From contig JAJOLG010000039.1 in NCBI GenBank assembly GCA_021129445.1, positions 1 through 14,022 of the forward strand: 14,022 nt of DNA. Direction: 5' to 3'. The notes below the pieces were generated by a model. The model was given only the letters and a program-made list of their open reading frames with translations, searched no databases and had not been told where the DNA came from. Below are positions 1-14,022 of the stretch, piece after piece; position 1 is the stretch's first letter, and every line of letters begins with the position of its first letter. This DNA comes from Candidatus Altimarinota bacterium. GTDB lineage: Bacteria > Patescibacteriota > Gracilibacteria > GCA-2401425 > JAJOLG01. The position numbers and the translations under genes are program-made.

Positions 1-1
1 A

Positions 2-259
2 AAAATGTTGAAAGATGAGGTTGAAAATGCATTTTTTATTTCAAAAGAGGATTTCGAGCAAAAAATAAAAAAGTGATGAATTAGGGCTTGAGCAGATGTT
101 TTTTATAAGTTTTATAAAGATATTCTTGATATTGAAAATGCAGAATATTGGTGAGATGAGCAAATTAAAAATATTTTATTGAAAAATAGGTATTCGCAAA
201 AAAATATTGTGATAGCTTGACCAGGTTCAAGATATAATTTGAAAAAGGAATGAAAATAG
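2..259 (+). CDS. 3' end of unidentified protein (partial), upstream of IPK
   Basis: This is an open frame from the window edge to TAG at 257-259, read with TGA as glycine; four or more TGA codons lie in it, including a GG pair. About 85 C-terminal residues are visible. An ATG at 5-7 is in frame, but the true start is probably outside the window. The visible end contains GGIRAGADVFYKFY and closes with IVIAGPGSRYNLKK. I could not assign it to a family. The stop overlaps the next start by 10 nt (ATG at 250), so it is probably co-transcribed and translationally coupled with the isopentenyl phosphate kinase. An isoprenoid-related role is therefore possible, but that is only inference from position. 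Confidence 0.6.
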
Positions 260-996
260 AGAAAAATATTTTAATAAAAATTTGAGGATCGCTTCTTGCT
301 CCAAAGGATTCGCAAAAAAAAGATTTTCAAGTTGTTAAATTTTTATCCGAAATTATAAAAAAATTTCCGGATAAAATTTTTTTTATTGTTAATTGAACTT
401 GAAATGTTTGACACGGTTTTGTGAAAAAAAATGAATTAAATGAAAAAAATATTTTGATTTTACAGCAAAAATTGCAAAATTTTTTTGCTGAAATTGATGC
501 AGAATTTTTTAAAAATTGAGTTAAAAAAAAGGATTTTCAGAGATTTGAAACTCATAAAATTTTTTTGGATGAGAAAAAATTTTTTTTGGATTGAAAAAAA
601 ATTTTTGATAAAAAAATAAATATTTTTTGATGAGATATTTTGGAAAATTGAAAAATTATTTCCTCAGACAAAATTTTTTGAGATATAATAAATTTTTTTG
701 AGAAAAAGTGAGAAAAATTTTCTTGATTTTTTACAGGGGATACTGATTGAGTTTATGATGAAAATTGAAAAACTATTGAAAAAATTTTTTTGGAAGATTT
801 TGAAAAAATAGATTTTTTTGAGAAAAAATGAGATCAGACTGGTGGTATGAAAAACAAGTTTTTGGAATTATTTTGAAAGAGTTTTGATGAAATTATTATT
901 TTTAATTGAGAGAAATTTTCAAATTGGGAGAAAATTTTTTTTGATATCTGATGAAATTTTGATTTTTTTACAAAAGTTTTGGCAAAAAAGTGATAA
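250..996 (+). CDS. Isopentenyl phosphate kinase (amino acid kinase family)
   Basis: The 248-residue product fits the amino acid kinase fold. Visible motifs are the N-terminal phosphate loop IKIGGS (9-14), GTGNVGHG (49-56) with a histidine at 55, FGGDI (126-130), SSDKI (138-142), GDTDGVYD (163-170) and DQTGGM (195-200). The GxGxxGH histidine and the D-x-TGGM loop are hallmarks of isopentenyl phosphate kinases, which phosphorylate isopentenyl phosphate with ATP to give IPP. Aspartate and glutamate kinases and UMP kinase lack this histidine arrangement. Length is normal for the family (about 245-265). Most conserved glycines are TGA codons. The protein is unusually rich in Phe and Lys, reflecting extreme AT bias. 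The start overlaps the upstream stop; an AGGA touches the ATG and is too close to be a normal ribosome binding site. Substrate is inferred from motifs alone; another small amino acid kinase is the alternative. Confidence 0.82.
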
Positions 997-1030
997 AAAA
1001 AAATATTTTATAAAAAAAACAATTACTTTT

Positions 1031-1060
1031 TTATGAAAAAAGAATTTTTTTGAGTATAAT
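1031..1060 (+). promoter_or_regulatory. Candidate promoter for the pilin-like gene
   Basis: A perfect TATAAT lies at 1055-1060, preceded by TGAG, which is nearly an extended -10. The best -35 is a poor TTATGA at 1031-1036 with an 18-nt spacer. It sits 51 nt before the ATG at 1112, in the gap after the kinase stop. In such AT-rich DNA a chance TATAAT is likely, so support is modest. Confidence 0.4.
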
Positions 1061-1111
1061 TACTTGAATTTTAAAAAAATTCAGTCAAAATTAAAAAAAT
1101 TAAAAAATATT

Positions 1112-1447
1112 ATGAAAAATTTAACTTGAAAAATTACTGCATGATTATCAATTTTTGCAGTTCAAACAATGACTTTTGCAAAATGGTGAGTTGATCAAAC
1201 AATTGTTGCTGAATGATCATCATCTGCTTGATTTAAAACATGAGTAATGACAGTTGTAAATTATTTTTTATGATTTTTATGACTTGTTGCAATGTTAATG
1301 ATTATTAAAGAGTGACTTACTATGGTTACTTGATGAGACGAAGCTAAAGAATGAGCTAAAAATAATATTATTGCACTTATAATTTGATTAGTTATTATTA
1401 TTCTTGCTTACTCAATCGTAAGATTAGTTACAGATATTCAAGTTTAA
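1112..1447 (+). CDS. Small T4SS-pilin/VirB2-like membrane protein
   Basis: The product has 111 residues. It starts with a signal-like segment (GLSIFAVQTMTFA, residues 11-23, possible cleavage after Ala23). A Ser/Gly-rich stretch follows, then a first membrane helix (about 47-65), a short polar loop with GGDEAKEGAKNN (74-85), and a second helix (about 86-103). Signal peptide plus two hydrophobic helices with a glycine/charged loop is the architecture of VirB2/TrbC-type pilins and of the T4SS_pilin family common in candidate-phyla bacteria. In those families the mature peptide sits in the cytoplasmic membrane, possibly as a pilus or secretion subunit. No other secretion genes lie nearby, so a role in conjugation cannot be claimed. 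It is monocistronic, with its own terminator at 1466. The leader before the ATG has no Shine-Dalgarno motif. A generic small two-helix membrane protein is the alternative. Confidence 0.7.
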
Positions 1448-1465
1448 TTAAAATATGAAAGATTT

Positions 1466-1496
1466 AATCCTGATTTTTTAATCAGGATTTTTTTTA
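1466..1496 (+). terminator. Rho-independent terminator of the pilin-like gene
   Basis: A perfect 10-bp inverted repeat has arms AATCCTGATT (1466-1475) and AATCAGGATT (1480-1489) around a TTTT loop, followed by a T run. It lies 18 nt after the pilin-like stop. Confidence 0.9.
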
Positions 1497-1553
1497 GTTT
1501 ATTTGCATTTTTTTAAAAAAAAAATATTTTTTGAAAAAAATAATTTTTATTAT

Positions 1554-2813
1554 ATGGTAAAGGATTTTATTAAAACATGAAAAGAAATTTTCAATAAAAC
1601 TAAAAAAAATATTGAAGATTTAAAAAAAGATAAAAATACAGAAGTTTTTTCTGTTCCTGAAATTCCAGAATTTTCACAAAAATGCAATGAACAAGTTGTT
1701 CATTTATCAGCATCTTCTGTCGCAAAGTCAACTTTGGCAATTTTATGAATTTGAATTTTATGTTATTTTATTTACTCTGTTTCTCATCTTTTAATTTTAT
1801 TTTTTATTTCATTATTTTTTGCGGCAACTTTGGATCCAGCGGTGGATTTTTTTGAAAAATATAAAATTCCGAGACCAGTTTCTGTTTTATTTTTATTTTT
1901 ATTAATAGTTTTATTTTTAATTTTCTTTATTTGATCAATAGTGCCAGTGGTGGCTGATCAGATTTCAGGAATTATTTCATCAATTTGAGCAAGTATTTTG
2001 ACATTTTTTACTGATTTACAAAATTGAAAAGTTGTAATTCCATATATTTGAGAAGCTTTAAATCAAAGTATTGTAAACACAATTCAATCAGTTGATTTTG
2101 ATGTTTTGATAAAATCGATTTTAGAAAATTTTACTTGATATTTAAAAGAAATTCAGTCAATCGCACAATGATGACTTGTGGCAGCTGGACAGGTTATGAA
2201 CACCTGAGCTACTGTAGTTTGAGCGATTTGATCATTTTTATTTGATTTGATTTTAGTTTTGTTTTTGACATTTTTTATTGTGGTTGATAGGGCAAATTTA
2301 AATAATTTTTTTAGATCTTTATTTCCACTAAAAAATGCGAAATATATCGAAGAAAAAACACGTTCTATTCAGTTAAAAATTTGATGATGGGTGAGAGGTC
2401 AATTTGCATTGATGGTTTTGATGTTTATTTTATCACTGATTTGATTATTTATAATTTGAATGTGAGAATATGCAGTGACACTTGCGATGATAATTTGAAT
2501 TTGAGGAATGTTGCCTTACATTTGACCAATCGTGTTTTTATTGATTGCCCTGCCAATTGCGTTTAATATGTGATTGTTTATTGTTGTAAAATTATTGATT
2601 TTATATTGAGTTTTGCAATTTTTAGAATGAAATATTTTAGTGCCAACCGTTATGAATAAGGCGGTTTGATTAAATCCAATTGTGATTTTAATGGCAATTA
2701 TTATTTGATTTCAATTTTTGTGAGTAATTTGAGCAATTTTGTCTGTTCCATTTGCAACTGCTGTTTCAATTTTTATCAAAGATTTTATTGATTTTCAGCA
2801 GAATAAAAAATAA
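1554..2813 (+). CDS. AI-2E/PerM-family membrane transporter
   Basis: The 419-residue polytopic protein matches the AI-2E transporter family (YdiK, PerM, TqsA relatives). There is a cytosolic head (1-58), two hydrophobic segments at about 59-93 and 109-135, a soluble amphipathic middle (135-215), a hydrophobic stretch at 218-246, and a C-terminal membrane bundle from 285. Family signatures are RGQ (281-283), the LPYIGPIV loop (320-327), NILVPTVMNKAVGLNP (360-375) and the final SVPF (397-400). Members export diverse small molecules or exchange ions; the substrate cannot be told from sequence. TGA codons occupy many helix glycines. The gene sits alone between two terminators. A weak TTTGCA/TATTTT pair at 1502-1530 could be its promoter. 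The start is the first ATG before the charged head; no ribosome binding site is evident. Confidence 0.92.
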
Positions 2814-2823
2814 TTTTACAAAT

Positions 2824-2853
2824 AAAAAAAGCTTGTTTTTACAAGCTTTTTTT
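2824..2853. terminator. Bidirectional terminator between converging genes
   Basis: A hairpin with arms A7-GCTTGT (2824-2836) and ACAAGC-T7 (2841-2853) surrounds a TTTT loop. It has a U tract in either direction. It lies between the permease stop (2813) and the aminotransferase stop (2856) and can serve both. Confidence 0.9.
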
Positions 2854-2855
2854 AT

Positions 2856-4136
2856 TTAAAATTTTTTAATAAAATTTTTTATAGTATTTAAAATTTTTTC
2901 ATATTTTTCTAAATTTTCTTCTAAAAGTGTTATTCTGAAACCTTCAAAATGAGAATTAAATCAACTTAACGGAACACTACAAATTCAGGTTTTTGCAAGC
3001 ATATAATAACAAAATTTTTTATCAAATCTTCAATCAGAATTTTTTATTGTTTCATCAATAAAATTTTGTAATTCTTTATTTTCAAGAGAAATTTTTTCAT
3101 TTCAAGAAAATTTCTCCATATTAAAAGTTATCGATAAATAAAATGCTCATTTTGGTTTTACAATTTCAATTTTTTCACAATCTGAAAAAATTTTTTCTGC
3201 TAAATCTGCTCTTTGTTTGTATTTTTCAATCCTAATTTTTCTGTATTTTTCAAATTCTGGTGATAAATAAAGTTTAGGTAAAACTTTTTGCGGTAAAGTT
3301 GTTGAGCAAACTTCAAGCATTTTTGAATTTAAAACTGAGTCGATGTAATCTGAAAAATTTTTATCTTTTTCTTTATTATAAACCTCTATCCATCAACACC
3401 TCGATCACGGCCAGGGCAAATCTTTTGACATTCATTTCATCGAAATTCATGGTACATCTAAAATTATTTCTGATAATAAAGTTTTGTTTTTGTCATCAAA
3501 AATCAATTTTTCATAAATTTCATCAAAAATCACATAAAGCTCATATTTTTTTGCGATTTTAATTATTTTTTCCAAAACATCTTTTTTAAAAACTGCACCG
3601 GTCGGATTATCTGGGTTTACCACTAAAATTCACACAATATTTGGATTGAATTTTACTTTATTTTCTAATTCTTTCAAATCTGGATTCCATTTGTTTTTTG
3701 GATCTAATTTGTAAGTTATGTGTTTGCTTCAAGCATGGGCAGCTTCGGCAGAGGAGTGGGTTGAATATGCAGGGTTTGGTCAAATAATTCTTGCGTCAAA
3801 TGCTAAATTTTTATAAATTTTTGAAATTGCATCTCAAAGTCAGTTGAAAAAAATAATATTTTCTGGATTTAATTTTGGATTATTCTTTGCAAGAAATTTT
3901 CTTGTTTCTTCAAGTCATTTTGTTGGACAATATCAATAAATTACATCATTCTCACATGATTTTTGTACAATTTTTTTCATCCATTCTGGGATTTTTTCTC
4001 ATTTTGCAACAGGGTCTCAAATATTTTCCCAAATTATTTTTTGTCAAAAATTTTCAACAATTTTTGCAATTTCAACAATTTTTCTAATTTCATAACTTAA
4101 TTCTTTTGATCAGTGGTGTAAAATATTTTTTCTCAT
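2856..4136 (-). CDS. Class I PLP-dependent aminotransferase
   Basis: The complete 426-residue fold-type I aminotransferase transfers an amino group between an amino acid and a 2-oxo acid through PLP. Visible residues are NPDNPTG (174-180), the pyridine-binding Asp205 in FDEIY, the Schiff-base Lys238 in SKDLPWPGSR, Arg246, and the carboxylate-binding Arg401 near the end (HFEGFRIT). The C-terminal pattern LAKTGIC..P.SGF..HFEGFRIT resembles AlaT-type alanine/aspartate enzymes; exact substrates are uncertain. Start ATG at 4134-4136 is followed directly by the substrate-arm segment. It is transcribed alone, diverging from the SDR gene across a 57-nt gap and converging on the permease gene at a shared terminator. 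Confidence 0.93.
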
Positions 4137-4193
4137 TTTATTTTTTATTTTTTGAAATTTAAAAAATTTTTTTCAGAATGTAAAAAAAAATTT

Positions 4194-4880
4194 ATGGAAA
4201 AAATTTTAATCACCTGAACATCATCGTGAATTTGAAAATTTTTGGCGGAAAAATTTTCTGCAAAATACAAGATTTTCTGAATTTCAAGAAGAAAAATTTC
4301 TGAATGTTGAGAAAAATTTTTTGGTGTTGAGAAAAATTTTTTTGAAATAAAATGAGATTTGAAAAAAAATTCTGAGATTGAGAAAAAAATTTTAAAATTA
4401 AAAAAAAATTTTTCCGATGGTCAGGAAGATTTTTATTTTGATAAAATTATTTTAAATGCATGAATTTGATATTTTGAGAATTTTGAAACAATGCAAAACG
4501 AAGAAATTTTCGAAATTTTACAAGTAAATTTATTGGCAAATATTTTTTTGGTAAAATTTTTTTTGGATGAAAAATTGATAAAAAAATGATGAAAAATTAT
4601 TTTTATTGGTTCAAAAGCATCGAAAAAATTTTGAAAAAATTGAGCTGTTTACATTGCTTCAAAGTTTTGATTAAGAGGTTTTGCAGGTTGATTGCAAAAA
4701 GATTTATGAAGAAAAATATGAATTCATTTAATAAATACAAAAGTTGTAAAAACAAATTTTCACAAAAACTCAAAAACTGAGATTCAGTGAAAATTTGCTG
4801 AAACTCAGATTGAGAAAATTTTTGGAGCTTGTGAGGAAATTTTTGATGAAAAAGAGGTGGGGTTTGAAGTGGATTTATAA
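4194..4880 (+). CDS. Short-chain dehydrogenase/reductase (SDR)
   Basis: The 228-residue classical SDR carries the nucleotide-binding TGTSSGIG (7-14), the NAG motif (88-90), Asn112, catalytic Ser140, and Tyr153/Lys157 in the YxxxK motif (YIASK), so the full catalytic set is present. It probably oxidises or reduces a carbonyl/alcohol with NAD(P)H. Arg31-Arg32 after the second strand hint at NADP(H) preference, which is inference. The substrate is unknown. Length is at the short end for the family. Glycines of the Rossmann loop are mostly TGA. The gene is single, diverging from the aminotransferase, and its stop lies 4 nt from the converging small gene at 4885. A possible TTGAAA -35 lies at 4152, with no convincing -10. 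Confidence 0.9.
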
Positions 4881-4884
4881 AAAA

Positions 4885-5109
4885 TTATTGTACATGTGGA
4901 AATGTTTTAACAGGAATTATGTAATCAATTGCATCAGTTTGTACTGTTAATAATTCAGACAATCTTTCTTTTAATCTATCAGAAGTTTCATTTTGATATG
5001 CATGAATAATTGTTTGTTTTGTGTTTTTTTCTGATTTTAATTTGTAGTCAACAATTATAGTTGCCTTTTCATGTTTATTGTTATATGTAAAAGATTTTTG
5101 TGTATTCAT
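4885..5109 (-). CDS. Small hypothetical protein
   Basis: The product has 74 residues, is hydrophilic and of mixed charge, and has no signal peptide or membrane segment. It contains no glycine and therefore no TGA codon, so it reads the same in any code. The middle (DRLKERLSELLTVQTD) looks helical. The N-terminal half (KATIIVDYKLKSE) could form strands, suggesting an alpha/beta mini-domain. I do not recognise the family. It is the last gene of the long minus-strand run, 64 nt after the Bax-inhibitor-like gene, and could be its own unit. No clear terminator follows, since the SDR gene ends 4 nt away. Confidence 0.6.
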   Translation of the reverse strand: MNTQKSFTYNNKHEKATIIVDYKLKSEKNTKQTIIHAYQNETSDRLKERLSELLTVQTDAIDYIIPVKTFPHVQ

Positions 5110-5173
5110 TGAATAAAATTATTTAATAATAAAAATTTAAAATAAGTTTTTATTTAGTTTTATCAAGAATAAA

Positions 5174-5836
5174 TTAATTATTATTATTATTCAACTGAGT
5201 TAAAAGTGATAAAATTGATTGAAACAAGTTAAAAATTGATAAATAAAGTCAGATCGCAGCTGCAACAGCCATATTTTCTGGGTAATATTTTAATGTATTG
5301 ATGTCATAAGCGATAAAAATTGAGAACAAAACAACTCAAACTCATGAAATCATCATTGAAACCATTGAAGATGGCCAAATCATATTAAGAATTCATACAA
5401 TAATTAGTCAGATTACTGCCATCATTAAAAATCATCACATTCAAGACATATCTTTTTTTGTTGTTGCTCAATAAATTCATGCAGCGAAAGATAAACAGGA
5501 AGTTGCAATAAATGCTTTCATTATAAGCATTGGATTGATTGCGATTGCCATTCAAATAAGTGGTGCAATTGCAACTCATAAAAGTCATGCTAAAAGTGAA
5601 AAAATCACTAAATTAAGCGGTTCTTTTGTCATCCAAAATTTTCATGAAAAAATAATTCAAATCAATAAAATTAGAGAAATTATTGGATTTCATAAAAATG
5701 GCATTGATGACAAAATTTGTGGTGCAAAAAATACTGCAAGAGCAGAAACTCACATTGCGTATCAAATTAATCAGAAAACTTTTAGTATGAAAGGTGATGA
5801 AAGCTCTCTTTGGTAGACTTGTGTTGTGTTTATCAT
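5174..5836 (-). CDS. Bax inhibitor-1 / YccA family membrane protein
   Basis: The 220-residue, strongly hydrophobic protein has about seven predicted membrane helices and matches the BI-1/LFG/YccA family. Signatures are YGATTKKDMSGMGGFL (122-137), the AYD pair with Asp178, and the last helix LYLSIFNLFQSILSLL (197-212). In this family the conserved Asp residues form a pH-sensing latch for Ca2+ leak; in bacteria the role is poorly defined and linked to FtsH proteolysis. It ends in five Asn codons (ATT repeats on the plus strand), an odd tail. It lies 102 nt downstream of murG, so it may have its own promoter; two TATAAA boxes precede it without a well-spaced -35. Confidence 0.9.
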
Positions 5837-5938
5837 AATTTTTTAGTTAATTTATATTTTTCAAAATTTATATTGATTAAATTTTTTGTAAAATCAAGTT
5901 AATAAACTTTACTTTTATTTTTTGAAATATTCAAATAC

Positions 5939-6973
5939 TTAAAAAACATGTTTAATCTCATTTGCAATTTTCTCCGCAGGATTCTCAAAATTTTTTTCTT
6001 TCAAATTTTTCTTAATTTCAGAAAAATCCGAATTCAAAATTTCCAAAAATTTTTCTCATCAAACACATTTTTTTGCCAATTTTTCACTCTCTATTTTTTC
6101 CGAATTTTTCAATTGATGCTCGCCAGCACTTCAAATCAATGGAATCAAAATCGCGGGTTTTTGAAAAAATAAAATTTCTGCAATTGAGCCAGCTCCTGCC
6201 CTTGAAATAAGTAAATCTGCAATTTGTAAAAAATAAAAATATTCATCTCAACTCAAAAATTCAAATTGCAAATAATTTTTATTTTTAATTTTAGTTTTTT
6301 TTCATTTTCAAGTTAAGTGAATTACGAAAAAATTTTTTTCAATTTCTGAAAAATTTTTTTCAATCAAATTATTGATTTCCAAAGAACCTTGTGAGCCTCA
6401 TGAAATCAATAAAATTTTTTTATTTTCTAAAAAATTTTTTTCAATATTTGGAAAATTTTTTTTCACAAGTGGGAAAATTTTTTCTTGAATAAATTTTTTT
6501 TTCTCGCTTTCAGAAAATTTTTTTCAATAAAAATTTATCGGGTTTCAGATTTTCTCTCAATAAAAAATTTTTTTTGCAAATTTTGCGATTATTTTGTTCG
6601 AAAATCACATAACAGCATCGGATTCGTGTAAAATTATCTTTTTTCACAAAATTTTTCCAGCAATTGCAACCGGGAGTGAAACAAAACCTCATTTGCAAAA
6701 AACCGCATCAGGATTGAATTTTTTTATGATTTTTAAACTTTGAAAAATTCAAAAAATGAATTTAAAAAAATCTGTAAAATTTTCTCACGAAAAATACCTT
6801 CTGAGTTTTCAAGAAGATATTTTTTTGTATTTAAAATTTGTTTTTTTTAAAATTTCTTCGTCTAAATTGTTTTTTGAAATCAGAAATAATTTTTCTCATT
6901 CTAAAAAATTTGCGATTGCCAAAGATGGGAAAATGTGTCATCAAGTTCATCAGCCTGCGAAAATTGTTCTCAT
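5939..6973 (-). CDS. murG: UDP-GlcNAc : undecaprenyl-PP-MurNAc-pentapeptide GlcNAc transferase
   Basis: The 344-residue GT28 enzyme adds GlcNAc to lipid I to make lipid II on the inner face of the membrane. Visible motifs are GGGTGGHIFP (7-16), the acceptor-side loop CKGGFVSLP (93-101), HESD (116-119) followed by GFSNK, GGSQGS (192-197), SRAGAGSIAE (257-266), and the UDP-GlcNAc site KPAILIP with GEHQ (284-287). Length is close to normal (about 350-365). The first loop alone uses four TGA codons for invariant glycines, the best single proof of recoding in this window. The ATG lies 2 nt after the TPR gene's stop (TAACAATG), so translation is probably coupled. It is very rich in Lys and Phe. No other mur or fts genes are in view, so it stands apart from a classic dcw cluster. 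Confidence 0.95.
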
Positions 6974-6975
6974 TG

Positions 6976-8520
6976 TTATTTTATTAATTTATTATAAAAC
7001 CTAATCGCTTTTTTTCAAATTTTTCAATTCGGATTTTTTTTATAAGCTATTTCAAATTGTTTTAGTGCGATTGCAGTATTTCATTCTTTCATCGAAATTT
7101 CTCAGGCATAAAGATAATTTCTTGCAAGATTTGGATCAAGTTCAAACGCTTTTTTTAAAGCATTTTTTGCATTTTCAATATCTCAATTTAAAAAGTATCA
7201 ATATCAAACAATTGAATTTGCAAGAGCGCTTTCAGAGTGTCTTCTTTGAGCCCATTGTGCTATTTTTAAGGCAAGTTTAAAGTCTTTTTGGTTTTCAACT
7301 GAAATTTCAAAAGGTAATAAAAAATACTCAATTTTTTCAGAATTTTCACCAAGCATTTTTTTGTAAAAATCAATTGCATCTCAATATTTTTTTTCTTTAA
7401 AAGAAATTTCTGCAAGTTTTTGATAAATTTGAGATTTTGGTTCAAATCAATTTTTTAAAGCAATTAAAAAATTATGTTTTGCTTTTACTAAATCTCATAA
7501 ATCCTGATAAGCAAAGGCTTTGTAAAATTGAATATCCGGTTTTGTTGGGTCGATATTTTCTGCTCAAATTAAAATATTCAATCATTTTTTTGGCTCTCAT
7601 TCTCTAATTTTATTGTAAGCAAAAATAATTCTCGCGTCTCTGTAATCCTCTCTAATCTTTAAAACTTCCCATAAAATTTTGTTTGAAATTTCAAATTCAA
7701 ATGAGTTAGTCAAAGCTTTTGCGATCAAGGTGTAAAGATGGATTTTTGGCGAATCCCTGTAAGTTTTGTATTCTTCAAGTGCATTATTTATAGCCAAAAC
7801 CTTCAAAATGTAATTTGTATCTCATGATTTTTCAACAAGATTTTTTACATTATCAAATTTTTTCTCCAAAGTTTCTACATCTTCATTTGGGTTCAGATTA
7901 AAAATAAAATCAAAATAATAATATTTATAATTTTTATTTTTAATTCTATTCAAGATTAGCTGTGCTTTTTCCAAATCTTTTTGGTTCATTTTATTCCTGA
8001 TTAGCTCAAAAAGAAATTTTTCATCAGGAAAAATTGCCACCAAATTTAAAATATTTTTTTCAGCTTTTTTGTAATCTCAAATTAAATTTTGATTTTTGTA
8101 AAGTTTTTCAAGAATTCTCTTTTTTGCATTTAAAAAATCATTCAAAATTTTTCATAATTTTTGCAAATTTTTCACATTTTTATTTGCATAATTTTCTCAT
8201 TTTTCAATTTCCAGAATGCTTTTATTGTATTCATTTATCGCAAGTTCAATAAAATTTTGTGAGGCATAAAAATCTCATCTTTCCTCAAAAATTTTATATT
8301 TTTCTAAAAAATCTTTATCAAGAGATTTTTCAGCAATTTTAATTTTTTTTCACTCTTCCAAAATTTTTTTCTCATCAGAAATATTTTTTTTCTCAGTAGA
8401 AAAATTTTTTGTTAATTCATAAAAATTTTTTTCCAATTGTGAAAAAAAATTTGGGTTAAATTTTGTAAAAAGTGAAAAAATTATTGCCAATAATAGAAAG
8501 TAAAAAATTTTTGTGTACAT
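6976..8520 (-). CDS. Membrane-anchored TPR-repeat protein
   Basis: The product has 514 residues. Residues 4-20 form one hydrophobic helix with a short N-terminal tail, so it is probably anchored with the bulk on one side of the membrane. A coiled/helical stretch follows, rich in Lys and Glu, and then a series of helix pairs. The clearest tetratricopeptide repeats are near the C-terminus (about 431-499), for example GYGYFLNGDIENAKNALKK and the following repeat ending in a Pro-Asn turn; earlier ones are degenerate. TPR arrays are protein-binding scaffolds and the partner is unknown. It lies 1 nt after the EF-P stop and 2 nt before murG, suggesting one coupled transcript. Because of murG, a scaffold for envelope assembly is conceivable, but that is inference. 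Confidence 0.82.
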
Positions 8521-8521
8521 T

Positions 8522-9079
8522 TTATTTTACTCTTTCTTTATATTCTCAAGTTTCAGTGTTTACAACAACCATTTCTCAACTTTCGATAAAAAGTGGTACC
8601 ATAATTTCTGCTCATGTTTCAATTTTTGCTTTTTTGTTTGCTGATGAGGCTGTGTCTCATTTTACTCAAGGTTCAGCTTCAATAATTTTGTATTCAACAT
8701 TTTGTGGAAGTTCAATGTTTATCACATTTCCGTTCCATTTTAAAATAGAAACATCCATGTCGTCTTTCAAAAATTTTGTTTGGTCTCAAATTTTTTCTCA
8801 CTCAAATTCAAATTGATCATAAGTTTCAGTGTCCATAAAAGTATAAGAATTCCCAGAATTAAACAAATACTGTGCTTTTCATCTTTCAATATCTGCTTCG
8901 TCAAGTCTTTCAGATGAAGGAAAAGTTTTTTCAATTGTTGCACCTGTTAAAAGGTTTTTCATTTTTGTAACCATTTTTGCAGCTCATCTTGAAGATGGTC
9001 TTAACATGTATTTTACTATATTATAAGGTTCTCAATTTAATAAAATTTTTGCTCAAATTCTTAATTTTCATGCTTCCAT
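8522..9079 (-). CDS. efp: Elongation factor P
   Basis: The 185-residue, full-length EF-P relieves ribosomes stalled on polyproline stretches. Three domains are present: the KOW-like domain I (1-65), domain II with YLF..GNSYTFMDTETYDQ (71-89), and domain III with GVKGDTAS (138-145), ETGAEIMVPLFI and the ending NTETGEYKERVK. Aligned without gaps to E. coli EF-P, the modified Lys34 corresponds to Arg31 here, and the loop reads SSRG instead of PGKG. An arginine tip is typical of the rhamnosylated EarP-type factors, but those normally keep the PGRG context. No EarP, EpmA or YmfI-like gene is in view. The ATG directly follows the U tract of a strong hairpin (9080-9122). The gene is followed by the TPR gene after 1 nt. 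Confidence 0.95.
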
Positions 9080-9122
9080 AAAAAAATAATTTATTTTGTA
9101 ATTGAAAATAAATTATTTTTTT
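9080..9122 (-). terminator. 18-bp perfect hairpin between cupin gene and efp
   Basis: Arms at 9080-9097 and 9105-9122 are exact inverted repeats (A7 TAATTTATTTT against AAAATAAATTA T7) around a 7-nt loop. On the minus strand it follows the cupin stop by about 20 nt and ends in T7, as an intrinsic terminator would, although the stem has no G-C pair. The T run abuts the efp ATG, so it may instead be, or also be, an mRNA leader structure or attenuator. Confidence 0.7.
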
Positions 9123-9142
9123 TAGTTGGAAAATCAAATTTT

Positions 9143-10252
9143 TTATTCAGAGTCGGTTAAAAATACAGAATAAATAATTCAATCTCAGTTTAAATCATTT
9201 ATTTCAAATGTTTGATTTTTATCAAGAATTATTGTATCTCATTGAGACAAAGCATTATTTTTCTTTTCTTTTGTATTTTTTCAAACAAAATCTCATTTAA
9301 TAATATAAAAACAAGTTTTGCAATTTCACGATTCTAATGTTGTTTTGTTATTTCTGATTTCATCAAATTTAAAAATTTGAATAAAATATGGAACATTTTC
9401 TGTATCAAATTCAGCTTTATAAATTCATTTTTTTTCAGTTTCTTGAATATGTTGAATTTTTCATTCTCATGGGCGATTATCGATTTCGCTTCACCTGTCA
9501 AGCAAGGCTCATGGCAGTTTTACAGAAATATTCATCAATGATTCATTTGACGGATTGTAAATCGTATGGATTGTATTCGGTGGGAAAATTATAAAATCTC
9601 AAAAATCTGCATGTAATTCAACTAATTCTCAATTATGTCTGTATTTTGCGATGGATTCTCATGTGTAAAATGTAATTTCATAATTATTTTCGTGTAAATG
9701 TTCAGGTTGTGTATATTTTGGTGGTGTTAATGCAGTTACGATTGACGGAGAATCTAAATCTGAATATGCTAAAGGGTCTATTCAAATATACTCTCTTGGT
9801 TCTAAAACATTTTTATCTAAAAAAGTGTTTTTGTTTAAATATCATTCAGTTTTATGTCAATTTTTTTTAATTATTCAGCTAGTTTCTGGTAAAATTTGTC
9901 TTGCAAAATTCTCAAGTAAAACTCATTTAATATTTTTCCTTAAAAAATTATAATCTTTTTCTGAAAAATTATCTTTATTTTGCTCTAAAACAAACATTAA
10001 TTTCTGAGCTTGAATTCTTCTACTGTGTAAGTGAATATATTTATTCATATCTTCTCTTAAACTCATATCTACCAATTTTTCAACTCATTTTTTAAATTCA
10101 GTATTTTGCATATTTTTATAGTTATCAAGGGTTGATAAAATTGCATTAGCAAATCATTTAATATAATTTATTACTTTGTTTCTTTTATCTGGAATAATCT
10201 CCCTTTTGCATTTTTTTTCCAGTTCGTCTAATCACTGCTGTTTTAATTTCAT
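9143..10252 (-). CDS. Cupin-domain protein (one intact, one degenerate cupin)
   Basis: The product has 369 residues. An N-terminal helical region (1-125) has charged, possibly coiled segments. A cupin at about 170-260 follows: motif 1 has PEHLHENNYE with His185, His187, Glu192 and Gly198, and motif 2 is GDFIIFPPNTIHTIYN with Gly218, Pro224, His229 and Asn233, so all usual metal ligands are present. A second beta-rich unit (about 275-365) resembles a cupin with Cys311/Cys314 where HxH would be and no closing histidine. Cupins are dioxygenases, isomerases or sugar-binding sensors; which applies here cannot be told. The start lies 4 nt after the stop of the RelA/SpoT-like gene (TAATACAATG), implying co-expression. 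A hairpin ends the unit. I know no named family with this N-terminal region. Confidence 0.78.
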
Positions 10253-10256
10253 TGTA

Positions 10257-11954
10257 TTATTGTTGATTTTCTAATTTCTTCAAAGATTTTTTTATAACTT
10301 TTTCCAAATTTTCTTCTCAATAAATTTCTTTTGGAAAATAAAGTGGAATATTGTTAATTTGCTGTCTTTCTTTGTAATCTCAATGATAAGCAGGTGAAGT
10401 TTTGTCAATTTCTGCTTTTAAATAGTTTTCTATATCAAAAATTTGAATTTCAGATTCAATAAAATATTTTTTATTATAAAATTTATCTTTTAAATCTTTA
10501 AAAAGAGGGAATAAATTTTCCATTTTTCTGATTCATGGAATTTTTTCAATTGCATCAAAAAATTTATTTATTGTTTTTGATTTATATGAAATTTTAATAA
10601 TTCATTTTAATGAATTGTATTCAGAATTTGAATTTTTGTTTCAATTTTCAGACATAAAAACCGGCTCTTCAACCCATGAAGTTCTTAAAGTTCAAAGCTC
10701 ATTTTCAATAATTTTTAATAATTTTTTTCATTCATTATAATTTTCAACAACAAACATAAATCATTTTTCATCTAAAATTTCTTTTAATGAAGTGTGTTCT
10801 TTTCTTAAAAATTTTTCAATTGTAGAAAATGGGTTTTTTGCAACTCTTCATTGCATGTGCAAAATATTTATTTTTTGTTTATTTTTCTGATAATTTCTTT
10901 CTTTTCATTCTAATTCAAAAGAATTAAATTGAACTTTTTCATATCATTTTTTTTCTTCTTCTGAAAAAATATATTTTCAATTTTCATCTTTTTTCCAGAA
11001 AAAATCTTTTTTAATTGTATAATTATGCAAACTATTTTTGGTTTTCAATCAAGATGATAAAAAAGATGCTTTTGCTTGTTTTGTTCATAAATTTACAAGT
11101 TTTGAAATTAAAAAATCTCATTCTTCTTTTTCATGTTGAGTTGATAAAGTTGCATCTTTATTTATATAAAGTGAGCTTATCGCAAAAATTCTTTGAATTT
11201 CAAATTTTCACATTTTTATCTGTTTTAACTCATTTTCATATTTTTCAGGATTTTCTTTAAAATCATTTTTATCTTTTATAATACCAATTTTATTTTCTAA
11301 TTCATAATATTTTTTAAATAAATCAAATATTGTTTCTGATGAGTGAATATCTGGGAAATATTCACTTTGAAATTTTTCAGAATTTCAATTTATTTTACTA
11401 TAAATAGTGTAAATATGCTTTGTTGCAAGAGAAATATATTTAAAAAATTTTCAATCTAATTCTGCAATTGATTGTTTTTTTATTTCTTTTGAGCTGAATA
11501 ATAATTTTTCTCAAATATAATTTTTATAGTTTTTTTCAAAATTTTTTTTAGAAAAATCTTCATCGGATAAGTTTTCTAAATCAGAAGATTTATTAATGTA
11601 TTTATTTCAAATTCAAAAAGAATTTGCAGTTTTTATAAACTCAAAAAGTGTAGATTTTTTTTCTAAAAAATCAGGTTTTAATAAGCTATATTTTGTTTTT
11701 TTGTTTATAATTTTATTAATTTTTTCATCTTGAATGTCAATATTTTTAAAAAAATCAAACAAAAATTTATGTAATTTTTCCGAAATAAATGGGAGTTTCT
11801 CATTTAAATCATCTTTTATTTCAGAGAATACTAAATTATTTATTTCAATATTTTTTTCTTTTGAAATTTTTTCCAAAGCCTCCAAAAAAATTTTATTTTG
11901 TATTTCTCTAAAATTTTCGCTTTGTTCTAAATATTTTTTCTCAATATTATTCAT
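10257..11954 (-). CDS. RelA/SpoT-type nucleotidyltransferase domain protein with novel N-terminal region
   Basis: The product has 565 residues. Residues about 365-535 resemble the alarmone synthetase fold: GRVAKNPFSTIEK (369-381), matching the RxK..S...K ATP site; LDEKGFMFVV (394-403), matching the D..GFR.. Mg-binding strand; YNSL (446-449), matching the YxSLH GTP loop; EIQI (502-505), with the catalytic Glu; and AYHGDYKE (522-529), matching the AxH.YK end. Two normally conserved residues differ: Arg after GF is Met400, and His of YxSLH is Lys450. The first 365 residues are Lys/Glu-rich and largely helical, with no HD-hydrolase motif that I can see; no TGS or ACT domain follows. It could make or degrade (p)ppGpp or pppApp-like nucleotides, pyrophosphorylate tRNA as toxic small synthetases do, or be catalytically altered. 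It is first in a two-gene unit with the cupin protein. Family assignment is motif-based. Confidence 0.66.
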
Positions 11955-11980
11955 TTTTTAAAAAATTAATTTATCAGATG

Positions 11981-11986
11981 ATTATA
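11981..11986 (-). promoter_or_regulatory. Candidate -10 box of the RelA/SpoT-like gene
   Basis: The plus-strand ATTATA gives a perfect TATAAT on the minus strand, 26 nt before the ATG at 11954. The site is part of the palindrome ATTATAAT, so a plus-strand -10 also reads here. No good -35 sits at 16-18 nt. The 156-nt divergent gap must hold promoters for both this gene and the DsbA-like gene. For the latter, a weak TTGTCC (12074) to TAATAA (12098) pair is the best I see. Confidence 0.4.
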
Positions 11987-12002
11987 ATGAAAATTTTTTA
12001 TT

Positions 12003-12027
12003 AAAAAACAAGAAAAAATTGTTTTTT
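12003..12027. repeat. Small inverted repeat in divergent promoter gap
   Basis: A 9-bp perfect inverted repeat (AAAAAACAA at 12003-12011 and TTGTTTTTT at 12019-12027) with a 7-nt A-rich spacer lies between two divergent genes, just upstream of the candidate -10 of the RelA/SpoT-like gene. It could be an operator or chance in AT-rich DNA. Confidence 0.35.
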
Positions 12028-12110
12028 CAAAAAAATATTGTAAAAAAACTTTTTATTTCAAAAAAAATTTTTATTGTCCTTTTGAATTTTATAAAAATAA
12101 TAAAAAAATT

Positions 12111-13061
12111 ATGAAAAATTTATCGATTGTTGCAATACTTCTTTCTGTTATTGCTATTGCTTGAGTTTGATATTCGCACTATCAAATTACACAAATTAAC
12201 AATTTACCAGTAATTCAAGATTCAATTGCTGCATCTCAGCCATTTAATGTGACTTTTGTTTCTGATGAGGCTGATTTTTGAGAAAAAATTGAAAAAATTA
12301 AAGAAAAAATATTTAAAACGATGGAATACAAAATTGTTTCATCAACTTCACCAGAATGAAAAAAATTGATTGCAAAATTTGATGCAAAATCTTTGCCTTT
12401 AATGGTGACTTGAAAAGCAATTGAAAAATCTGAAATTAAAGATTATTTATCGCAATTAGCAGTTGAAAAAGATTGAGAATATTCTGTAAAAATTTGAGAT
12501 ATTGCTCAACAAATGGGGGTTTCAATTGATAAAATTTATTTAAAAGTTCCAGAAATTGCTGAATGGAATCCAGTAAAATGACCATCTGATGCAAAAGTGA
12601 CTTTTATTGAAGTTACTGATTTTGAATGTCCATTTTGTTCAAAATTTCATAATAATGCATACAAAAAAGTAGTTGAAAAATATTGAGATAAAATTAAATT
12701 TGTATTTAAAAATTTACCTTTGTGATTTCATAAAAATGCACAAAAAGCAGCAGAGGCTTGACTTTGTGCAAATGAACAATGAAAATTTTGGGAAATGCAT
12801 AATAAAATGTTTGAAAATCAAAAAGAATTGTGAATTGAAAGTTATAAAAAATGGGCTTGAGAATTATGACTTGACCAAGCAAAATTTGATAAATGTTTAG
12901 ATTCGTGAGCAATGGAGGCAAATGTTAAAGCTGATGCAAAAGAAGCAAATTCTTTTTGAATTCAATGAACTCCATGAGTTTTTGTAAATGATAAATTTGT
13001 TTGATGAGCTTATCCATTTGAAACTTTTGAAAAATTGATTGAAGCTGAGTTGGCTAAATAG
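12111..13061 (+). CDS. Membrane-anchored DsbA-like thiol oxidoreductase
   Basis: The product has 316 residues. A hydrophobic helix at 4-20 anchors or exports it. Residues about 45-125 look like a first thioredoxin-like domain without its CxxC; the SLPLMV segment keeps the cis-proline position (Pro96), but the strand end reads SDEADFGE. Residues about 150-316 form a DsbA/Thioredoxin_4 domain with the active site CPFC (Cys173, Cys176) in TDFECPFCSKFH and the cis-Pro loop GTPG (Pro288), followed by FVGGAYPFETFEKLI. It probably forms or rearranges disulfides in exported proteins outside the cytoplasmic membrane. No DsbB or VKOR partner is in view. It is monocistronic, with a strong terminator. 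The start is followed by the hydrophobic helix; the leader is A/T only. Confidence 0.9.
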
Positions 13062-13077
13062 TTTTAAATTTTTTTTG

Positions 13078-13105
13078 AACCCCTAAAATTTTTTTAGGGG
13101 TTTTT
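13078..13105 (+). terminator. Rho-independent terminator of the DsbA-like gene
   Basis: Arms AACCCCTAAAA (13078-13088) and TTTTAGGGGTT (13092-13102) surround a 3-nt loop, followed by T. It has the highest G-C stem content in the window and lies 16 nt after the stop. Confidence 0.93.
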
Positions 13106-13149
13106 ATTTTTTATGGAGTGGTTATTTAAAATTTTTTATAAAAATTTTT

Positions 13150-13183
13150 TGACAATCTAAAAATTTTTTATAAAAATATATTT
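13150..13183 (+). promoter_or_regulatory. Candidate promoter of the L21-L33 operon
   Basis: A perfect TTGACA is at 13150-13155. Downstream -10-like boxes are TATAAA (13170, spacer 14) and TATATT (13178, spacer 22), neither ideally spaced. The location, after a terminator and about 80-110 nt before rplU, suits a ribosomal protein leader. Confidence 0.4.
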
Positions 13184-13261
13184 TGTAGTTTTTAGGTTCG
13201 AGAATTTTTATTTTAAAAGAAAAATCACCTAAATTTACATTTATAATTTAATATTACAACG

Positions 13262-13567
13262 ATGATTGCAATTTTTAAAAACTGATGAAAACAGTACAAA
13301 TGTCAAAAGTGAGATGTTATCACTCTTGAAAAAATCGAAAAAGAAGTATGAACTGAAATTGAAATTAAAAAAGTTTTAATGGCTTTTGATGATAAAAATG
13401 TTGAAGTTTGAACACCTTTTGTTAAAAAAACAATTGTTGCTAAAATTATTGAAAACTGAAAATGAGAAAAAATCAATGTTTTCAAAATGAAAGCTAAAAA
13501 AAGGTATTCTAAAAAATACTGACATAGACAACCTTTTACAAAAATTGAGATTTTGGATATTAAATAA
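13262..13567 (+). CDS. rplU: 50S ribosomal protein bL21
   Basis: The 101-residue product is typical in length for bL21, a 23S rRNA binding protein of the large subunit. It shows GGKQYKCQKGDVI near the start (GGKQY at 8-12, both glycines TGA), the central KVLMAFDD, VGTPFV, the lysine-rich KMKAKKRYSKKYGHRQ rRNA-binding segment and the closing FTKIEILDI. The ATG at 13262 gives the canonical MIAIFKNGGKQ start. It is first in a two-gene operon with bL33, 33 nt apart, rather than with the usual rpmA. Confidence 0.96.
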
Positions 13568-13600
13568 TATCAAACTTTTTAACAATTTAAGAAAAATATC

Positions 13601-13777
13601 ATGGCTAGATGAAAAACATTACCTTTCGTTTTCAGATGTACTGAAAAGTGAAATATAATTAAACAAATGGATTGCAACAAAAAAATGCAAGAAAAAGCAA
13701 AAATTTGAATTAGACTTTACAATCCAATTTTGAGAAAATATACAATTGCGAAAGGGAAACAACATAAACATTCGTAA
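13601..13777 (+). CDS. rpmG: Probable 50S ribosomal protein bL33
   Basis: The 58-residue, very basic protein has FRCTEKGN (11-18), followed by a lysine/asparagine-rich turn and LYNPILRKYTIAKGK, which match the bL33 pattern (CTEC..RNY..KNK...KYNP.LKKHTLHKE). Of the four zinc cysteines of the C+ form, only Cys13 is kept, with Cys25 elsewhere, so it is a zinc-free C- type. Length suits bL33 (49-60). It lies downstream of rplU and before a terminator. The bL27 expected after bL21 does not fit. Some conserved positions (the RNY motif) are lost, hence moderate certainty. Confidence 0.74.
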
Positions 13778-13797
13778 AATATTTTTGAAATATTTTT

Positions 13798-13833
13798 AAA
13801 AAACTCTAAAAACTCTATTTTTAGAGTTTTTTT
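13798..13833. terminator. Terminator after bL33, probably bidirectional
   Basis: A 15-bp perfect inverted repeat (13798-13812 and 13818-13832, core ACTCTAAAAA) with loop CTCTA carries a T run on the plus strand and the mirror A run on the other side. It lies 20 nt after the bL33 stop and 3 nt from the converging stop at 13836. Confidence 0.88.
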
Positions 13834-13835
13834 AT

Positions 13836-14022
13836 TTATAAAAAAAATTTTATTTTGAGTTCGCAAAAAAATTTTTTAGATTGAAAAAAAATTTCTTGAA
13901 CAAATAAAAATTTTTCTTCTTGATTTTTCAAAAAAAAAAATTTTTCTAAATAAAATTTTTTTCATCAAAAATTTTCTAAAAAATTTAATACATAATCACA
14001 TCTGTAAAAAATAATTATACAC
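13836..14022 (-). CDS. 3' end of unidentified protein (partial)
   Basis: An open minus-strand frame enters from beyond the window and ends with TAA at 13836-13838, right at the bidirectional terminator, which supports it being a real gene end. About 61 residues are visible, including CDYVLNFLENFGGKKF and a Phe/Lys-rich tail. The GG pair is two TGA codons. It is too short and too low in complexity to assign. Long A/T runs (an 11-nt A run near 13930-13940) make the frame sensitive to sequencing error. Confidence 0.5.

What the first reader, a model, noticed from the sequence alone, without database searches (positions are those of the whole stretch)
9143..11954. Two-gene unit: altered RelA/SpoT-like protein with unknown 365-residue head plus a cupin protein
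The stop and start are only 4 nt apart. The first protein keeps most alarmone-synthetase landmarks (Arg370, Lys373, Ser377, Lys381, Asp395, Glu502, YK 527-528) but has Met in place of the GFR arginine and Lys for the YxSLH histidine, and lacks HD, TGS and ACT domains. The partner has a cupin with complete metal ligands and a degenerate second one. The pairing is not one I recognise. It could be a nucleotide-signalling or toxin-like module with a cupin effector or neutraliser.
Basis: partly seen in the sequence, partly recalled or inferred. Interest (0 to 1): 0.66.

Follow-up and report, generated by a model that had tools for sequence, protein, structure and literature searches.

The report
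Diverged RelA/SpoT-like enzyme beside bicupin
A bacterium that reads UGA as glycine carries an extra, strongly altered relative of the stress-signal enzymes RelA and SpoT next to a cupin (small beta-barrel) protein; the enzyme family is real and conserved in a few recoded relatives, but its pairing with the cupin is found only in this genome and is probably not a working module.

Summary
On the minus strand, read with code 25 (TGA=Gly), 10257-11954 encodes 565 aa and 9143-10252 encodes 369 aa, 4 nt apart. The named residues are all present.

The C-terminal ~200 aa of the first protein is a remote RelA/SpoT synthetase-type domain. It misses Pfam's RelA_SpoT cut-off but matches TIGR04552 at 1.6e-6. 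Seven relatives from recoded genomes share the predicted catalytic set R370, K373, K381, D395, Y446, E502. The two 'odd' residues are family traits, not decay: Ile/Met replaces one of the two arginines that sandwich ATP's adenine in RelSeq, and Lys/Gln replaces His of YxSLH. The ~345-aa helical head matches nothing found here. A complete Rel is encoded elsewhere in this genome.

The second protein is a bicupin with one intact and one ligand-less barrel plus a helical N-terminus.

The pairing is not conserved. None of the seven relatives' genomes has this cupin, and no other cupin carrier has the Rel-like gene. A toxin-neutraliser or enzyme-effector module is therefore unsupported.

Best reading: a new, lineage-restricted divergent RSH subfamily, probably a 3'-pyrophosphokinase with an altered donor site, beside an independent bicupin. 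Function is unproven.

The parts
10257..11954 (-). Rel-like gene, 565 aa under code 25 (21 in-frame TGA = Gly)
   Evidence: relatives in seven recoded genomes
10911..11954 (-). N-terminal helical region, about residues 1-348; matches no family searched
   Evidence: helices only in a low-confidence model
10320..10910 (-). RelA/SpoT synthetase-type domain, about residues 349-545
   Evidence: TIGR04552 1.6e-6; group profile hits RelP structures 6fgj/6ewz at 3.2e-6 and 1.1e-5
10812..10847 (-). R370-x-x-K373-x7-K381, donor/phosphate-binding motif; the two lysines are 8 residues apart as in RelP K80/K88
   Evidence: invariant in 12 sequences; RelP residues from PMC7983052
10755..10772 (-). D395 (RelSeq D264) to M400; M400 occupies the place of RelSeq R269, the second adenine-sandwich arginine
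   Evidence: PMC7983052
10605..10619 (-). Y446-N-S-L-K450; Y446 is at the place of RelSeq Y308, K450 replaces the YxSLH histidine
10443..10451 (-). E502-x-Q504 (RelSeq E323 position)
9143..10252 (-). Bicupin gene, 369 aa under code 25 (22 in-frame TGA)
   Evidence: 62% identical full-length relative in G429
9515..9745 (-). Cupin barrel 1, residues about 170-246, with H185, H187, E192, H229
   Evidence: PF07883 9e-9; model
9158..9382 (-). Cupin barrel 2, residues about 291-365, no metal ligands
   Evidence: model; Foldseek hits to bicupins such as oxalate decarboxylase
9080..9122 (-). Perfect 18-bp A/T-only hairpin with T run between the cupin stop and the efp start; possible terminator of the two-gene unit
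11955..12110 (.). 156-bp divergent gap to a DsbA-like gene; the Rel-like gene is therefore first in its run of genes

Best explanation
The first gene encodes a member of a small, lineage-restricted subfamily of RelA/SpoT homologues. A synthetase-type domain at the C-terminus keeps the two metal acids (D395, E502), the phosphate-binding lysines and the acceptor-stacking tyrosine. Most likely it moves a pyrophosphate (or another nucleotidyl/phosphoryl group) from a nucleoside triphosphate to a 3'-hydroxyl, with a donor site that differs from that of ordinary Rel because one of the two adenine-gripping arginines is a conserved Ile/Met. The ~345-residue helical head probably controls or localises it. 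It is an accessory gene next to a complete Rel. The bicupin downstream is an independent accessory protein that is probably co-transcribed here but is not a conserved partner. Shown: frames, motif conservation, remote homology, presence of ordinary Rel, lack of conserved pairing. Inferred: catalytic activity, donor and acceptor, role of the head, co-transcription.
For: P0001 alone matches TIGR04552 at 1.6e-6 and TIGR04562 at 4.1e-6, and six of seven family members match TIGR04562. Patescibacterial bridge proteins G058/G100 match P0001 (1.6e-6, 1.2e-5) and also Pfam RelA_SpoT (4e-5, 2.9e-4). A profile of 12 domains from the three groups has three small alarmone synthetases as its best PDB hits (6fgj 3.2e-6, 6ewz 1.1e-5, 6fgk 0.0077) and aligns along the whole synthetase domain of this genome's own Rel. 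Eleven residues are invariant in the 12 and several fall on RelSeq/RelP active-site residues (PMC7983052). A complete HD+synthetase+TGS Rel exists in the same genome, and all 13 other genomes examined have a RelA_SpoT match over cut-off. Non-pairing.
Against: Every single-family score is below curated cut-offs: PF04607 13 bits against 27, TIGR04552 28 against 125. The seven recoded members alone hit no PDB chain and do not align to Rel by hhalign; the significant PDB score needs the bridge and TIGR04552 sequences. No usable structure. No data on activity.
Confidence: 0.6

Rival explanations
1. Pseudo-synthetase: the Rel-type domain only binds a nucleotide (for instance an alarmone made by the canonical Rel) and signals through the helical head.
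For: Family-wide loss of the RelSeq R269 equivalent and of the YxSLH histidine; a complete Rel is present in the same genome.
Against: Both metal acids and the phosphate-binding lysines are invariant across 12 diverse sequences, which is unusual for a dead enzyme.
Confidence: 0.2
2. toxSAS-like enzyme that pyrophosphorylates tRNA 3' ends, with the cupin as its antitoxin.
For: Rel-type domain with retained catalytic residues; adjacent gene with a 4-nt gap; toxSAS toxins of this fold are known (PMC11559606).
Against: The cupin is absent from the genomes of all seven other carriers and the cupin occurs without the enzyme; no conserved alternative partner; no PADLOC match; no match in phage, plasmid or viral collections.
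Confidence: 0.06
3. A pair specific to this genome's lineage: the bicupin makes, binds or degrades a small molecule related to the enzyme's product.
For: 4-nt gap, joint position between a divergent gap and a perfect hairpin.
Against: Tight spacing is ordinary here: efp-TPR 1 nt, TPR-murG 2 nt. No second case of the pair among 353 genomes of the class.
Confidence: 0.12

Closest known systems
TIGR04552 / TIGR04562 family proteins (NCBIfam; function unknown; one annotated in Bdellovibrio sp. NC01, PMC9888234)
   Same: Same order of motifs, including ExQxxD in place of ExQIRT, a conserved His and a Gln at the C-terminal end, and Lys/Gln/His at the YxSLH position.
   Different: 28 bits against a cut-off of 125; different and longer head; Ile/Met where TIGR04552 members keep the Arg of GxR; no long insert after the first strand.
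Small alarmone synthetases RelP / SasA (YwaC) and the synthetase domain of long Rel (PF04607)
   Same: R-K-K, D, Y and E active-site positions.
   Different: Below Pfam cut-off; no HD/TGS/ACT; long unknown head; one adenine-sandwich Arg and the YxSLH His replaced; EIQIFD in place of EIQIRT.
toxSAS toxins (FaRel2, CapRel and others)
   Same: Rel-type catalytic domain.
   Different: No conserved antitoxin partner; long head; found only on chromosomal contigs of a few recoded genomes.
Bicupins such as oxalate decarboxylase OxdC
   Same: Two barrels in tandem (Foldseek about 1e-10, but low TM-score).
   Different: Only one barrel keeps metal ligands; about 120-residue helical N-terminus; no close sequence match.

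Membership tests
RelA/SpoT homologue superfamily (synthetase domain) | Pfam PF04607 over gathering score | tested here: not met
   13.4 bits against 27; bridge proteins 24.3 and 21.5
RelA/SpoT homologue superfamily (synthetase domain) | Metal acids and phosphate-binding residues (RelSeq D264, E323, R241, two Lys) and stacking Tyr (Y308) | tested here: met
   D395, E502, R370, K373, K381, Y446 invariant in 12 sequences
RelA/SpoT homologue superfamily (synthetase domain) | Second adenine-sandwich Arg (RelSeq R269) and YxSLH His | tested here: not met
   Ile/Met and Lys/Gln in all eight recoded members
RelA/SpoT homologue superfamily (synthetase domain) | Synthetase fold | tested here: inconclusive
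   model pLDDT 36, no significant Foldseek hit; profile of the wider group hits RelP
Long bifunctional Rel | HD, TGS and ACT domains | tested here: not met
   no such Pfam match; the genome's true Rel has HD, synthetase and TGS
TIGR04552 | NCBIfam cut-off of 125 bits | tested here: not met
   27.7 bits, E 1.6e-6
toxSAS toxin-antitoxin | Conserved adjacent antitoxin | tested here: not met
toxSAS toxin-antitoxin | Toxicity on expression, tRNA or nucleotide pyrophosphorylation | not testable with these tools
   needs expression and biochemical assay
Cupin superfamily | Cupin_2 over cut-off with HxHxxxxE and His ligands | tested here: met
   35.4 bits against 27.2; H185, H187, E192, H229

The most novel reading that the evidence does not exclude
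A Rel-fold transferase of recoded Gracilibacteria-type bacteria that uses a donor or acceptor other than ATP plus GDP/GTP, because the adenine site is remodelled family-wide, and so makes a nucleotide signal or RNA modification not yet described, controlled by a novel helical head.
Probability: 0.2. Interest if true: 0.6.

Novelty: new variant of a known kind. Interest (0 to 1): 0.36.

Why it matters
RelA/SpoT homologues now include makers of ppGpp, of ppApp and tRNA-modifying toxins, so a remote branch with an intact catalytic core and a remodelled donor site could carry out another chemistry. It occurs in candidate-phylum lineages, thought to be host-dependent, that also have an ordinary Rel. 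I found no functional study of its nearest named relatives, TIGR04552. Showing that the cupin pairing is not conserved saves effort on a false module.

Tried and rejected
Viral-contig scans with P0001, the family, the G058 protein and the cupin found no relative. Plasmid and phage protein searches with P0001 found nothing. Weak class hits in G417, G286 and G596 were not counted: the G417 hit lies in a canonical Rel, and the N-terminal hit in G286 lies in an SLH-repeat protein. The seven-member profile alone gave no PDB hit. The helical head was tested against TIGR04552, bridge and Rel proteins with shuffled controls and matched none. Promoter-like matches are at the number expected by chance. 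A different small cupin lies divergent to the G100 relative (L011:3009-3497) but not at G058, so it is not a conserved partner. Literature searches for a RelA/SpoT-cupin pairing and for alarmone work in candidate phyla returned nothing, as did TIGR04562.

Full report
Where it is. The window is one contig of a 673-kb, 95%-complete genome. Reading TGA as glycine (code 25) turns broken frames into full genes, as in SR1/Gracilibacteria. On the minus strand lie, in order, the Rel-like gene (10257-11954), the cupin gene (9143-10252), efp, a TPR protein and murG, with gaps of 4, 63, 1 and 2 nt. A DsbA-like gene diverges upstream after 156 nt. A perfect 18-bp A/T hairpin with a T run sits between the cupin stop and the efp start, so the first two genes may form a transcript of their own; this is inferred.

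The first protein. Pfam sees RelA_SpoT only at E 0.1, but NCBIfam TIGR04552 and TIGR04562 match at 1.6e-6 and 4.1e-6. A search of 353 genomes of the class found relatives in seven others, all with in-frame TGA, at 30-43% identity over most of their length. Two genomes outside the class (G058, G100) have more distant relatives of the C-terminal half, and these match Pfam RelA_SpoT at 4e-5 and 2.9e-4. A profile of twelve domains from the three groups picks RelP, then YwaC, from the whole PDB (3.2e-6, 1.1e-5, 0.0077) and aligns along the full synthetase domain of this genome's own Rel. The caveat is that the seven recoded members alone do not reach Rel in the PDB, and with the bridge proteins only E 0.011. 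The homology is therefore real but remote and rests on bridges.

Active site. Eleven residues are invariant in all twelve: R370, K373, K381, K385, D395, G398, Y446, E502, Q504, H524, Q531. In RelSeq, D264 and E323 are the catalytic acids, Y308 stacks on the guanine, and R241 and R269 sandwich the adenine of ATP; in RelP, K80 and K88 hold the terminal phosphate (PMC7983052). D395, E502, Y446 and R370 align with D264, E323, Y308 and R241 by way of the genome's own Rel, and K373/K381 have the K80/K88 spacing. M400 takes the R269 place (five residues after the Asp). All eight recoded members have Ile or Met there, the bridge proteins have Lys, and TIGR04552 members keep Arg. The YxSLH histidine is Lys or Gln in all eight. 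These are family traits and not decay of one gene. The likely consequence, inferred, is an altered donor site.

The head. Residues 1-348 are helical in a low-confidence model and match no Pfam, NCBIfam, PADLOC or PDB entry beyond a weak match to a designed helical bundle. A profile of the head scores no better than shuffled controls on TIGR04552, bridge or Rel proteins. Within the family it has its own invariant residues (for example N142, Y143, G148, K150, H204, E252, R255).

The cell has its own Rel. Contig C1 of the genome encodes a 721-aa HD-synthetase-TGS Rel, and all 13 other genomes checked have a RelA_SpoT match over the cut-off. The Rel-like gene is therefore an addition.

The cupin. 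It matches Cupin_2 over the cut-off, with H185, H187, E192 and H229. A three-sequence model shows a five-helix N-terminus and two barrels, and Foldseek's best hits are bicupins; the model's confidence is low (mean pLDDT 50). Relatives are rare: G429 (62% identical over 364 aa), G066 and G064. Their upstream neighbours, read by eye from the translations, are pheT-like, ribonucleotide-reductase-like and PNPase-like genes.

Is it a module? No conserved pairing was found. None of the other seven Rel-like carriers has the cupin anywhere in its assembly, their neighbours differ, and the other cupin carriers have no detectable Rel-like relative. The downstream side in G431 is cut by the contig end, but the genome-wide absence covers it as far as the assembly is complete (90%). 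A 4-nt gap is ordinary in this genome. The effector or neutraliser idea is therefore unsupported, though a pair specific to this genome cannot be excluded.

Verdict. A new, lineage-restricted variant of the RelA/SpoT homologue kind, nearest to but below the threshold of TIGR04552, next to an unrelated bicupin. Activity, substrate and the role of the head are open.

Noticed in passing
window 1-14022: All long genes need TGA = Gly, yet the one other held genome placed in the same order (G286, L017) shows long frames under the standard code, so either the order mixes codes or a placement is odd.
   Followed up: no
window 2820-2857: Perfect 17-bp inverted repeat between the ends of two convergent genes (PerM-like and aminotransferase), probably a shared terminator.
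   Followed up: no
L076 77-673: In G429 the 62%-identical cupin is followed 29 nt later by a 198-aa protein of unknown kind, not similar to window proteins.
   Followed up: partly
L065, L066, L067, L069, L070: Rel-like relatives in four genomes lie near ileS, and in three of them near a YjjX-like NTPase gene, suggesting an inherited chromosomal place in those lineages.
   Followed up: partly
L018, L019, L020: Three standard-code genomes of the class hold full TIGR04552 members over cut-off next to ordinary genes (threonyl-tRNA-synthetase-like in two).
   Followed up: no
L011 3009-3497: A small RmlC-like cupin lies divergent to the G100 Rel-like gene; absent at the same place in G058.
   Followed up: partly
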